Positions 4,948-14,394 of a stretch of 29,982 bases of DNA are shown one piece after another. The notes under the pieces are model-generated. The model was not told the origin of the DNA and did no database searches. It saw only the letters and a list, made by a program, of their open reading frames with translations. Each line of letters starts with the position of its first letter. Position 1 is the first letter of the stretch. Source of the stretch: a virus. The stretch covers positions 1 through 29,982 of IMG/VR virus record IMGVR_UViG_3300042484_000469, one strand, 5' to 3'. The position numbers and the translations under genes were made by a program.

Positions 4948-5030
4948 AAATTATTTGATGACAGCATTACTCGCAGAAATTGATAGGGGTCTCGCGTTCA
5001 CCTGTTATTGGAGATATGGCAAAAGATTCC
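4948..5030 (-). promoter_or_regulatory. AT-rich leader between replication and packaging modules
   Basis: These 83 bases separate the HTH gene from the packaging operon and are clearly richer in A/T than the flanking genes. Nearly all other neighbours overlap or abut, so a gap here is a plausible site for a promoter driving the packaging genes. I could not find a convincing sigma70 -35/-10 pair, so the call rests on position and composition only. Confidence 0.3.
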
Positions 5031-6700: not shown

Positions 6701-7467
6701 TGGTAGTCCTCGATGTTGGTGCTGTACGCGCCGGTGCCATTGTTCCCAGAGGGGGAGGTGCTTCGAGACTTGTCGATCTCTCCGTTCCAGTTGTTCAACA
6801 GGGTCATCAGCTCACGTCGAAGGTATTTGTCGTCCGACTGGTACCGTGCCTCTAGGGCAACCAAGTCTTCCTCTGGAGTGTTAAAGTCGAAGATCTCTTT
6901 CAAGGCCTTGATCTCTTTCGCACTCCACTGGGTGCTGGGTCGACGGCGGATCATTGCACCGACTCGTAGGCGAAAGGCTTCAAGGTCAGGACTCAAGGCT
7001 TTCTGCGAAACTCCTTCCTTTCCATTCCCTTCCCTTCCCTTCCCTTCCCCTTGACCCGCGTGGTCGTCGCGTGGGGCACGCGTGGGGCACGCGTCAATTT
7101 CCTCGGTGTTTATTGGCGTTTCCTGAATGTTTCCCTCTGGATCCGGTAGAACTGATTCCGATTCCCGGTTGTTGATCACCTGGTGCTTTAGGAAGCTGGG
7201 GATAAACCCAAAGCACGCGTCACCCACGCGATACTTGAGAACGAAAGCACGCGTGGCCAACGCGTCGAGCACGCGTGAAAAGTCGACGCCATCGTAGGGC
7301 AGCACCTGCACACCGATGCGCCTGGGCTCCCACTTAAAACGGCCTTCCCGGTCAGCAATGCACCAGAGGCCAGCAAAGGCCACGCGGAGCGGTAGCTTGG
7401 TTTCCAGCTCGGCCTCGAACAGTCCCTCATGATGGAAGAACTCCGGCTTGATCGTGCGGATTCTCAT
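6697..7467 (-). CDS. Phage replication initiator / helicase loader (lambda O-like)
   Basis: This 256-aa protein opens with MRIRTIKPEFFHHEGLF, a motif I know from many phage replication proteins with an N-terminal winged helix. Residues about 1-110 form that DNA-binding part. Residues 113-150 are a disordered Gly/Lys/Glu linker (GEGKGREGNGKEG), and about 165-256 form a DnaT/DnaD-like helical part ending in NIEDYQ. It sits directly upstream of dnaB. Its coding sequence contains a GGGAA array and at least five GCACGCGT repeats that look like an origin, as in lambda O. Both ends overlap the neighbouring genes by ATGA. The exact split between initiator and loader roles is inferred. Confidence 0.85.
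   Translation of the reverse strand: MRIRTIKPEFFHHEGLFEAELETKLPLRVAFAGLWCIADREGRFKWEPRRIGVQVLPYDGVDFSRVLDALATRAFVLKYRVGDACFGFIPSFLKHQVINNRESESVLPDPEGNIQETPINTEEIDACPTRAPRDDHAGQGEGKGREGNGKEGVSQKALSPDLEAFRLRVGAMIRRRPSTQWSAKEIKALKEIFDFNTPEEDLVALEARYQSDDKYLRRELMTLLNNWNGEIDKSRSTSPSGNNGTGAYSTNIEDYQ
7027..7050 (-). other. G-quadruplex motif (GGGAA array) in initiator gene
   Basis: On the minus (sense) strand there are five runs of three or four G, each separated by exactly AA. This matches the canonical G3N2 x4 quadruplex rule. The reading frame passes through it as a Gly/Glu/Lys linker. It lies 26 bases from the first strong iteron at 7076. It could form in the displaced strand or in the mRNA. Confidence 0.75.
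7076..7276. repeat. Iteron cluster, candidate replication origin
   Basis: The octamer GCACGCGT occurs on the plus strand at 7076, 7087, 7213, 7247 and 7269. Further ACGCGT cores are at 7260 and degenerate forms at 7058, 7068 and 7226. Two copies extend to AAAGCACGCGT (7210 and 7244). Spacings between start points are 11, 126, 34 and 22 bases, close to whole helical turns. The copies fall in all three codon phases of the overlapping gene (for example tCA-CGC-GTG, ACG-CGT-GCT, gAC-GCG-TGC), so the DNA and not the protein is conserved. The less GC-rich stretch 7095-7205 between the groups could be the unwinding element. The arrangement parallels lambda ori inside gene O. Confidence 0.75.
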
Positions 7468-12672: not shown

Positions 12673-12806
12673 CGGGAGGCTTTCTTTAGCCAGGCCAGGA
12701 TAGCATGGTCGGCCACCGCCTGGATCTTGAGGCCGTTGGCAATGCAGTAGGCTCGCAGTTTTTGGTGGGTGGTTGGTGTCACGTTGATGGTCTTTGGTTT
12801 GGTCAT
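12669..12806 (-). CDS. Tiny ribbon-helix-helix-like protein
   Basis: This 45-aa protein runs from the ATG at 12806 to the TGA at 12669. Its N-terminus KTINVTPTTHQKL is a typical ribbon strand, followed by two helices (RAYCIANGLKIQAVADHAIL and WLKKAS). This is the Arc/CopG plan for a dimeric DNA-binding repressor. Both ends overlap neighbours by ATGA, which supports it as a real gene despite its size. It may autoregulate this part of the early operon. Confidence 0.75.
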   Translation of the reverse strand: MTKPKTINVTPTTHQKLRAYCIANGLKIQAVADHAILAWLKKASR

Positions 12807-13279
12807 TGGGTGAGCTGTTTCGAGATCTCCTGGCCGAGACTGGATGATGTTCTGCCCAGGAGGGCTACACGATGCGCCATCTTCTCGGTGACGGCTTCGT
12901 GCCTCTTCCTTTCACATTCCGACAGCAGGTTGAGGTTCGTCTTGGTGCCCAGGATCACCGAGGCCGTGAGGCTGTTTACTGCCACGCGGTTCATGCGCTC
13001 CATTTCCTCGGCGTTGGTGTTGGGAGGCGCGATATGGAAGCCAGCCCCGCGGAAGCCCCGCTGGCTGAAGTTCATTCCTCGGTGCCGCAGCACTATCCGA
13101 ATGTTAAGGATTGCCATATTGAATTCCACGGTTCCGATCTTCTCCTCCAGGGCTGCTTCCATTTCCTCGGTGGTCACGGTCAGGCCGTAGGCCAGCCGGT
13201 GCTCGTTGCGTTCGATCCAGTCCTTCCAGAGCGGAAGGCGCCGGACCTCTTCTTCGTTGATCATGTCTTGTGTTTCCAT
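12803..13279 (-). CDS. Hypothetical protein downstream of repeat array 1
   Basis: This 158-aa protein starts at ATG 13279 (METQDMINEEE), 14 bases after hairpin H1 of the first repeat array. An in-frame extension into the array would translate pentamer repeats and is rejected. It is helical and charged, with LPLWKDWIERNEHRL, two further amphipathic helices and LSECERKRHEAVTEKMAHRVALL near the end. No catalytic motif is recognised. Its leader has the hairpin and a CTTTCACAAC stretch instead of a Shine-Dalgarno, and its stop overlaps the RHH gene as ATGA. Confidence 0.7.
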   Translation of the reverse strand: METQDMINEEEVRRLPLWKDWIERNEHRLAYGLTVTTEEMEAALEEKIGTVEFNMAILNIRIVLRHRGMNFSQRGFRGAGFHIAPPNTNAEEMERMNRVAVNSLTASVILGTKTNLNLLSECERKRHEAVTEKMAHRVALLGRTSSSLGQEISKQLTQ

Positions 13280-13293
13280 GTTGTGAAAGTTGC

Positions 13294-13576
13294 CCGGTGT
13301 TACCGCACACCGGAAAGCGTTGTTGCCTTGCTCTGCCGTACCAAGCCACGCCTTGCCGCGCCCCGCCATACCGATCCCTGAAAAATTGTCTGGGTTACCG
13401 TACCCAGTGACGTGTTGCCTCGCCGCGCCGCGCCTGGCCCGGCCTTGCCTCACCGTGCCACGCCCCGCCCTAAAAAATTGTCCCGGATACCGCGCCGGGT
13501 CGCGTGTTGCCTTGCCGTGCCGTGCCGCGCCGCGCCGAGCCTAGGCTTGCCGCGCCAAACCAGGCCGAGCCTTGAG
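13294..13576 (-). repeat. Hairpin-GGCNN pentamer array 1 (three modules)
   Basis: Plus-strand hairpins are H1 13294-13313, H2 13390-13407 and H3 13482-13499. Between them lie blocks of degenerate NNGCC pentamers (GGCNN in the transcript): 11 at 13323-13377, 11 at 13415-13469 and 13 at 13507-13571. In the transcript, H2 and H3 are followed by ACAATTTTTCAG or ACAATTTTTTAG. Stems differ but pair (CTGGGT with ACCCAG in H2, CCGGTGT with ACACCGG in H1). The sense-strand hexaloop is RCGGTA in all three. Module period is 92-96 bases. Pentamer periodicity is not a coding signal. The array fills the whole gap between the genes at 12803-13279 and 13581-14156. Confidence 0.9.
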
Positions 13577-13580
13577 AAAA

Positions 13581-14156
13581 TCAAACCACCTCGACAGTGA
13601 ACCTGCCGAACTTCGGTCTCCAGTCGCCCAGGCCGACCAATCCGCCAGCCTCGCGTGATGCGTCGATCACTTGCTCCTTTGAGACAACCGATTCGTCAAA
13701 CTCGATGGTGCAGGTAGCCCACCAACCGGAAGGAACCATCGGCCGGACTCGAATGATTCCGAGGTCGACGCGCTTTCGCAGTGTGAAAGCCGGGTCGGAG
13801 TAAATCTGCTCCTTGGTCTGGCCCATCTTGCGATGGTGAATGACCACCTCTGCCTCGGATAGCAGCACCGCGGCGTCAAACTTTTTGCCGAGTCGCGCCT
13901 TCTTAGCGCCGTCCTTGAGGCACTTCTCGATGTTGTCGCACGGAAGGACCATGCCGTTCTCGATGTCTGACCAGTAAAGGCCGGCCTCCCATTCGAGGCG
14001 GTCGCGTTCGTCATGATCGCTTGGTGTCATGTTTTTGCTGCCCTTGACGGTGATCCGTTTGATCGCCACGACATAAGGGTTTTTGTGATCCACCATGTCG
14101 CCGTTGTGCATGATGAGGGGCCGCAGCCCGGTGAGTTTGACTTTGATCTGCTTCAT
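13581..14156 (-). CDS. RAMP/Cas7-like phage protein (family uncertain)
   Basis: This 191-aa protein lies alone between the two hairpin-GGCNN arrays. Residues 1-19 (KVKLTGLRPLIMHNG) look like the first strand of a RAMP fold. About 70-90 (VLPCDNIEKCLKDGAKKARLGK) resembles the IPGSSIKGALR helix of Cas7-type proteins. The C-terminus (GGLVGLGDWRPKFGRFTVEVV) is a glycine-rich loop with an invariant-looking RxxFGRF. I have seen this arrangement in many phage proteins of unknown function, so the gene is real, but the RAMP link is motif-level inference. If right, it binds RNA. Its own leader has hairpin H4 and a CA-rich tract, with no Shine-Dalgarno. Confidence 0.6.
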   Translation of the reverse strand: MKQIKVKLTGLRPLIMHNGDMVDHKNPYVVAIKRITVKGSKNMTPSDHDERDRLEWEAGLYWSDIENGMVLPCDNIEKCLKDGAKKARLGKKFDAAVLLSEAEVVIHHRKMGQTKEQIYSDPAFTLRKRVDLGIIRVRPMVPSGWWATCTIEFDESVVSKEQVIDASREAGGLVGLGDWRPKFGRFTVEVV

Positions 14157-14199
14157 GTTGTTTTGCTTTGGTTGCCTTGTTTTTGTTTACCGAAAGTGT

Positions 14200-14394
14200 C
14201 CGGTGATACCGCTCACCGGCAGGCGTTTTGCCTAGCCACGCCCGGCCACGCCCCGCCACGCCTTGCCCGGCCGGGCCCTGCCCTGAAAAATTGTCCTGGT
14301 TGCCGTACCAGGTGACGTATTGCCTCGCCCCTCCACGCCTTGCCCAGCCGGGCCGGGCACTGCCACGCCGTGCCGCGCCTAGCCAAGCCTCGGA
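14200..14394 (-). repeat. Hairpin-GGCNN pentamer array 2 (two modules)
   Basis: Hairpins are H4 14200-14219 (CCGGTGA stem, sense loop GCGGTA) and H5 14295-14312 (CCTGGT stem, sense loop ACGGCA). Pentamer blocks are 11 copies at 14228-14282 and 14 at 14320-14389. H5 is followed in the transcript by ACAATTTTTCAG, as in array 1. H4, nearest the downstream ATG, instead precedes ACACTTTC, matching GCAACTTTC after H1. Internal blocks have exactly 11 pentamers in both arrays, while the outermost blocks, next to the upstream gene's stop, have 13-14 and end in a GAAAATCA-like sequence. The array fills the gap between the lytic transglycosylase and the RAMP-like gene. Confidence 0.9.

What the first reader, a model, noticed from the sequence alone, without database searches (positions are those of the whole stretch)
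13294..14394. Two hairpin-GGCNN pentamer arrays with covarying stems flank one gene
Five hairpins (13294, 13390, 13482, 14200, 14295) share a sense-strand hexaloop of RCGGYA type. Their stems differ in sequence yet still pair: CTGGGT/ACCCAG, CCTGGT/ACCAGG, CCGGTGT/ACACCGG, CCGGTGA/TCACCGG and CCCGG/CCGGG. That is covariation, which points to selection on RNA (or cruciform) structure. Between them lie about 60 degenerate GGCNN pentamers, exactly 11 in each of the three internal blocks and 13-14 in the outer blocks. Three of the hairpins are followed by ACAATTTTTCAG or its one-base variant. The module period is 92-96 bases. G2N3 periodicity allows stacked two-quartet G-quadruplexes, and 10 bp per two pentamers is near one helical turn. 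I know no standard feature with this architecture.
Basis: seen in the sequence. Interest (0 to 1): 0.88.

Follow-up and report, generated by a model that had tools for sequence, protein, structure and literature searches.

The report
Phage VIPR guide-RNA locus
The repeat arrays are five predicted guide RNAs of a VIPR system, a recently described CRISPR-like weapon that phages use against rival phages; this is a new metagenomic branch of a known kind, not a new kind of element.

Summary
Five modules of 10-13 GGCNN pentamers, each ending in a GGCAA plus hairpin tail, flank the gene at 13581-14156 on the minus strand. The reading as an unknown element is superseded. This is a VIPR locus (Viral Interference Programmable Repeat; PMC13142463, 2026 preprint). 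The flanked gene encodes a Vipr protein: it matches PDB 36pp 'SUSP1 Vipr protein' (E = 1.9e-25) and SUSP1's own gene in GenBank. Its AlphaFold model (pLDDT 92.7) matches Csm3/Cas7-type CRISPR backbone proteins. The downstream gene is a remote homologue of SUSP1 vap1. The arrays are vrRNAs whose hypervariable NN dinucleotides spell a target read with a one-base skip. Of 53 viral loci with arrays, 41 also encode a Vipr homologue, against 0 of 99 without arrays. About 17 distinct tails keep the stem through sequence changes, and their loops can form a short pseudoknot. I decoded all five guides. No convincing target was found for this phage's own guides. A sister-phage guide matches 8 consecutive NN of this phage family's cos site (set-wise p about 0.05), a suggestive lead only. 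Verdict: new member of a known, very recent kind.

The parts
14325..14389 (-). vrRNA 1 guide: 13 pentamers, NN = TT TA GC AC GT AG CC CC TG AA GT GG GA
   Evidence: near-identical guide in L025, L041, L052, L119
14283..14324 (-). vrRNA 1 tail: GGCAATACGTCA, hairpin CCTGGT-ACGGCA-ACCAGG, ACAATTTTTCAG
14233..14282 (-). vrRNA 2 guide: 10 pentamers, NN = AG CC CG AA GT GG GT CG GT TA
14200..14232 (-). vrRNA 2 tail: GGCAAAACGCCTG, hairpin CCGGTGA-GCGGTA-TCACCGG; no T-run, continues into the vipr leader
13581..14156 (-). vipr: RAMP-like effector protein, 191 aa, G-loop GLGDWRPKFGRF
   Evidence: PDB 36pp_D SUSP1 Vipr E=1.9e-25; SUSP1 gene tblastn 5e-24; AF2 pLDDT 92.7; Foldseek Csm3/Cas7
13512..13571 (-). 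vrRNA 3 guide: 12 pentamers, NN = TC CT TT GC AA TA TC GC GC AC AC AA
13470..13511 (-). vrRNA 3 tail: GGCAACACGCGA, hairpin CCCGG-CGCGGTAT-CCGGG, ACAATTTTTTAG
13420..13469 (-). vrRNA 4 guide: 10 pentamers, NN = GG GT AC GA AA CG CA GC GC GA
13378..13419 (-). vrRNA 4 tail: GGCAACACGTCA, hairpin CTGGGT-ACGGTA-ACCCAG, ACAATTTTTCAG
13328..13377 (-). vrRNA 5 guide: 10 pentamers, NN = TC AT GG GC AA GT TT AC AG AA
13294..13327 (-). vrRNA 5 tail: GGCAACAACGCTTT, hairpin CCGGTGT-GCGGTA-ACACCGG; no T-run, continues into the vap leader
12803..13279 (-). vap1-like accessory gene, 158 aa
   Evidence: hhalign against the SUSP1 Vap1 family: probability 95, E 3.4e-8; Vap profile finds its homologue in L072 at 1.6e-5

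Best explanation
The region is a phage-borne VIPR locus. Five vrRNAs of about 80-110 nt are transcribed on the minus strand. Vipr (13581-14156) oligomerises along the GGC repeats as RAMP subunits do on a crRNA, and the structured tail anchors one end. The exposed NN dinucleotides pair with double-stranded DNA in the pattern NNxNNxNN. Bound complexes repress genes or block sites of rival phages or satellites in the same cell, helped by the Vap1-like protein. Shown here: homology of Vipr and Vap, the predicted RAMP fold, the array layout, tail stems conserved through sequence changes, hypervariable NN against fixed GGC. Inferred from the preprint: RNP formation, the one-base skip rule, repression. 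Inferred by me: the T-runs after vrRNAs 1, 3 and 4 act as terminator or processing sites, while vrRNAs 2 and 5 double as mRNA leaders.
For: The window protein matches PDB 36pp_D 'SUSP1 Vipr protein' over its full length, E 1.9e-25, and the SUSP1 gene by tblastn, 31.6%, 5e-24. The SUSP1 locus has arrays upstream of vipr and downstream of vap1, as in PMC13142463. AlphaFold model pLDDT 92.7; all 50 listed PDB fold matches are CRISPR effector-complex entries, mostly type III (Csm) and type VII. Vap homology. Arrays go with Vipr: 41 of 53 array-bearing viral loci have a homologue, 0 of 99 array-free loci do, and most of the 12 without one carry the array near a fragment end. 12 of 13 alphaproteobacterial Vipr loci also have an array just downstream. 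Per-position entropy in 878 pentamers: G 0.25, G 0.24, C/T 0.70, N 1.96, N 1.97 bits. NN composition resembles codon positions 1-2 (r 0.73 with both strands mixed) and not positions 3-1 (r -0.27), as wobble skipping predicts.
Against: No full-length natural target was found for this phage's own guides. Overall, skip-1 matches in family DNA exceed controls only through one related guide set. Transcription, RNP formation and targeting were not measured. The pseudoknot is only 3 bp with one covarying pair in two states.
Confidence: 0.95

Rival explanations
1. Leader or attenuator RNAs: the hairpins with ACAATTTTT are intrinsic terminators or regulatory 5' leaders of the flanking genes, and the GGC repeats are bound by a TRAP-like ring protein that reads 11 spaced triplets.
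For: Three hairpins score as terminator-like. The arrays lie in gene leaders. The 5-base period and 11 repeats resemble TRAP sites (own knowledge).
Against: Terminator-like sites are not above shuffles (4 against 3.3). Repeat number varies from about 6 to 17 in relatives. Distant phages carry long arrays with other tails next to a Vipr homologue. The partner gene is a RAMP, not TRAP.
Confidence: 0.03
2. Neutral low-complexity or recombination-linker DNA that expands by slippage.
For: Array length varies and blocks appear shared between related phages.
Against: GG is kept in 97% of pentamers while NN is close to maximum entropy, which slippage would not give. Tails are conserved with compensated stems. 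Strict linkage to Vipr.
Confidence: 0.01
3. A degenerate VIPR locus: true homology, but the guides no longer have targets.
For: No target found for the window's own guides.
Against: GGC and tails are intact in all five modules, and guide 1 is kept almost unchanged in several other contigs. Public sampling of its rivals is thin and the host is unknown.
Confidence: 0.05

Closest known systems
VIPR system of Escherichia phage SUSP1 (type II; PMC13142463; PDB 36pp)
   Same: Homologous Vipr (31.6%) and remote Vap1; phage-borne; multiple vrRNAs of GGY/NN repeats with a structured 3' tail; possible H-type pseudoknot with the same strand order.
   Different: GGC rather than mostly GGT repeats; two vrRNAs upstream of vipr and three between vipr and vap, instead of one upstream and three after vap; tail is a GGCAA plus 5-7 bp hexaloop hairpin of unrelated sequence; uncultivated host; own supported 4-row clade in the tree.
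Class 1 CRISPR-Cas backbone RAMPs (Csm3, Cas7)
   Same: Predicted fold and glycine-rich loop; RNA-guided assembly is assumed by analogy.
   Different: No CRISPR repeats or spacers, no other cas genes recognised; guide code is noncontiguous; sequence identity about 10-15%.
TRAP (MtrB) 11-triplet binding sites
   Same: Pentamer period, about 11 fixed triplets with free NN spacers.
   Different: Protein unrelated; NN is information-bearing and hypervariable; repeat number not fixed. Works-like analogy only, from memory.

Membership tests
VIPR | Small (about 20 kD) Vipr protein homologous to SUSP1 Vipr | tested here: met
   phmmer to 36pp_D 1.9e-25, residues 1-190; tblastn to SUSP1 5e-24
VIPR | RAMP fold with glycine-rich loop | tested here: met
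   AF2 pLDDT 92.7; Foldseek Csm3/Cas7 E about 2e-5, TM about 0.5; GLGDWRPKFGRF, with R180, G184, F186 invariant in 22 homologues
VIPR | Intergenic RNAs of 9-16 GGY/NN repeats with hypervariable NN | tested here: met
   13, 10, 12, 10, 10 repeats plus the tail repeat (and sequence); entropy profile
VIPR | Conserved structured 3' tail, pseudoknotted in the SUSP1 clade | tested here: inconclusive
   Stem conserved through changes and loop RCGGYA. A CGY-RCG pseudoknot is possible in all genuine tails (about 17 distinct), with one covarying pair in two states. RNAfold, which cannot show pseudoknots, gives a competing GGC-GYC mini-hairpin
VIPR | Adjacent vap gene | tested here: met
   hhalign probability 95, E 3.4e-8 against the SUSP1 Vap1 family
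VIPR | Noncontiguous DNA targeting with a 1-nt skip | tested here: inconclusive
   One related guide set with 8 consecutive NN at the cos site, set-wise p about 0.05; no target for the window guides
VIPR | vrRNA expressed and bound by Vipr | not testable with these tools
   needs RNA sequencing and pull-down
VIPR type II | Groups with SUSP1 in the Vipr tree and carries vap1 | tested here: inconclusive
   vap1 homologue present; the deep forks of my 34-protein tree are weak, and the preprint's type references are not held
CRISPR-Cas | Array of near-identical repeats with unique spacers, plus cas genes | tested here: not met
   No such array; TRF finds only the degenerate pentamers and unrelated short repeats; no PADLOC or Pfam hit for Vipr

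The most novel reading that the evidence does not exclude
VIPR guides in this phage family target the cohesive-end (cos) packaging site of sibling phages, so the complex would block DNA packaging or genome circularisation rather than transcription. The guides track allelic variants of the rival's cos flank while sparing their own genome.
Probability: 0.3. Interest if true: 0.78.

Novelty: new member of a known kind. Interest (0 to 1): 0.5.

Why it matters
VIPR was described only in 2026, with experiments on a few systems. This locus adds a clearly separate clade with dozens of related guides, a different tail architecture and gene order, and decodable guides. That lets the guide code, self-avoidance and target choice be studied by comparison in uncultivated phages. 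If the cos lead holds, it would add a new mode of attack, interference with packaging rather than gene repression.

Tried and rejected
(1) Rfam: no family at gathering threshold; no tRNA. (2) blastn of the region to cultured phages: none. (3) Target search for the window guides in 2.9 million viral contigs: guide 1, two seeds, 0 hits; guide 5, one 9-NN seed hit in L133 inside a tail-fibre-like ORF, in frame (GIGANVFTSN), but about one hit is expected by chance by my estimate and the outer NN do not match. Guides 2, 3 and 4 were not scanned for lack of scans. (4) The first guide A seed had a spacing error of mine (6 instead of 7 wildcards), so its last dinucleotide is out of register; the cos match was re-established with correct spacing on contigs not fetched by that seed. 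(5) Longer in-register seeds for guides A and B: 0 hits, so the cos match stops after 8 of 17 NN. (6) Skip 0 and 2 gave no run above 6. (7) MAFFT misaligned the tails, so pairs were counted by template in Python. (8) G-quadruplex and helical-phase ideas: not pursued, no longer needed. (9) The own genome is only this virus record; no host could be named, since the nearest cellular Viprs are at most 38% identical.

Full report
What was checked. The five hairpins and about 60 GGCNN pentamers are present at the stated positions on the minus strand, the coding strand of nearly all genes here. GGCNN x5 with up to two mismatches is found 47 times against 0.35 expected, 45 of them in these arrays. Each module is a run of 10, 12 or 13 pentamers, a conserved GGCAA(N)ACGY, a 5-7 bp stem around RCGGYA, and in three cases ACAATTTTTYAG. 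Two modules precede gene 13581-14156 and three lie between it and gene 12803-13279.

What it is. A literature search for phage pentanucleotide repeats led to PMC13142463. It describes VIPR: a phage-encoded RAMP protein (Vipr), an accessory protein (Vap), and vrRNAs of 9-16 GGY/NN repeats with a structured 3' tail. There the NN dinucleotides specify double-stranded DNA read with a one-base skip. I tested membership independently. The gene between the arrays matches SUSP1's vipr in GenBank and the solved 'SUSP1 Vipr protein' 36pp_D over its full length at 1.9e-25. The SUSP1 stretch itself shows GGY arrays before vipr and after vap1, as the preprint says. An AlphaFold model from 22 window and viral-contig homologues (mean pLDDT 92.7) matches CRISPR effector backbone subunits, chiefly Csm3, as its best PDB folds. 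The downstream protein is a remote Vap1 homologue.

Linkage. Loci came from scanning IMG/VR for the array by DNA pattern alone, a second pattern scan and later target scans. Of those with an array, 41 of 53 also encode a Vipr homologue; of 99 without an array, none does. Most of the 12 exceptions carry the array near a fragment end. Cultured phages of Mycobacterium, Gordonia, Pseudomonas and Escherichia with a homologue mostly carry GGY arrays too, although two of the nine examined (phiHSIC and prophiBWHA-1) gave none at my threshold. So do 12 of 13 alphaproteobacterial genome loci. The window's Vipr forms its own well-supported clade with the other contigs of its family; deeper forks are weak.

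Guide and tail evolution. In 878 pentamers of 83 clade guides, GG is kept in 97% and the third base is C or T in 96%, while the NN positions have 1.96-1.97 bits of entropy. NN composition correlates with codon positions 1-2 with both strands mixed (r 0.73) and not with positions 3-1, as expected if the skipped base falls on the wobble position; this is weak evidence. About 17 distinct genuine tails keep the stem, with A-U/G-C exchanges at several pairs and a few single broken pairs. In every one the base after CG and the first loop base are C with G or T with A, which allows a 3-bp H-type pseudoknot (CGY with loop RCG) of the same strand order as the one I can draw for SUSP1 (and sequence). 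RNAfold, which cannot show pseudoknots, proposes a small GGC-GYC hairpin, so the pseudoknot is unproven.

Targets. The five window guides were decoded and are listed under parts. No convincing target was found. Guide 5 matches 9 of 10 NN in frame in a tail-fibre-like ORF of L133, which is near chance expectation. A 17-repeat guide in sister phages (L014, L022; variant in L025, L052) matches 8 consecutive NN at ACAGGTGAACGCGAGACCCC. This element is at 4986-5005 in the window, just upstream of the terminase genes. Several family contigs end at ...GGTGAACGCGAGAC and several others begin at GGTGAACGCGAGACC, so the element is very probably the cos site. The two guide variants (AT or GA) match the two cos-flank variants. 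The guide-A phage L022 (a 39.9-kb contig with repeated ends, so probably complete) lacks this cos and gives no match to the window's terminase and portal. L052 carries the AT-type cos but the GA-type guide. Shuffling guide order gives a run this long in 51 of 1054 full sets; skips 0 and 2 never exceed 6. The remaining 9 NN do not match and longer seeds found nothing. I treat this as a lead only.

Mechanism. Most likely the locus makes five short guide RNAs that, with Vipr and helped by the Vap1-like protein, bind and silence DNA of competing phages or satellites. RNP assembly, DNA binding and the skip rule are transferred from PMC13142463, not shown here. The T-runs after vrRNAs 1, 3 and 4 look terminator-like but are not above chance in number.

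Verdict. A genuine and striking feature, but one already explained by a 2026 preprint: a new, divergent member of the VIPR systems.

Noticed in passing
window 4986-5005 (-); L171, L198, L200, L202 starts; L052, L080, L174, L197, L199, L203 ends: Contigs of this phage family start or end at the same 14-15 bases, GGTGAACGCGAGAC, identifying a cos-like cohesive end upstream of the terminase genes; sister-phage VIPR guides match 8 NN of it.
   Followed up: partly
L022 / G005 (39.9 kb, repeated ends): A relative shares the VIPR, RuvC-like and lysis-like genes with the window but gives no match to its terminase and portal, and lacks the cos element; it carries the cos-matching guide.
   Followed up: partly
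L133:2849-2877: Window guide 5 matches 9 of 10 NN, in frame with the skip on wobble bases, in a glycine-rich tail-fibre-like protein; about one such hit is expected by chance.
   Followed up: partly
L008, L012, L013, L082, L083: Very long GGCNN arrays with recurrent GGCAGGC phase slips, next to Vipr homologues of another branch where the locus reaches that far; possibly the preprint's staggered arrays.
   Followed up: no
L023:1032-1522: Array blocks separated by conserved long hairpins (TTCGCATCGTC...GACGATGCGAA) and a divergent Vipr; tail type unlike the window's.
   Followed up: no
window 7013-7049: Short CCTTC pentamer tandem repeat (7.4 copies) unrelated to the GGCNN arrays.
   Followed up: no
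GU169904.1 91694-92263: Record named Staphylococcus phage SA1 carries a Vipr like the enterobacterial Felixounavirus ones; the host label may be wrong.
   Followed up: no
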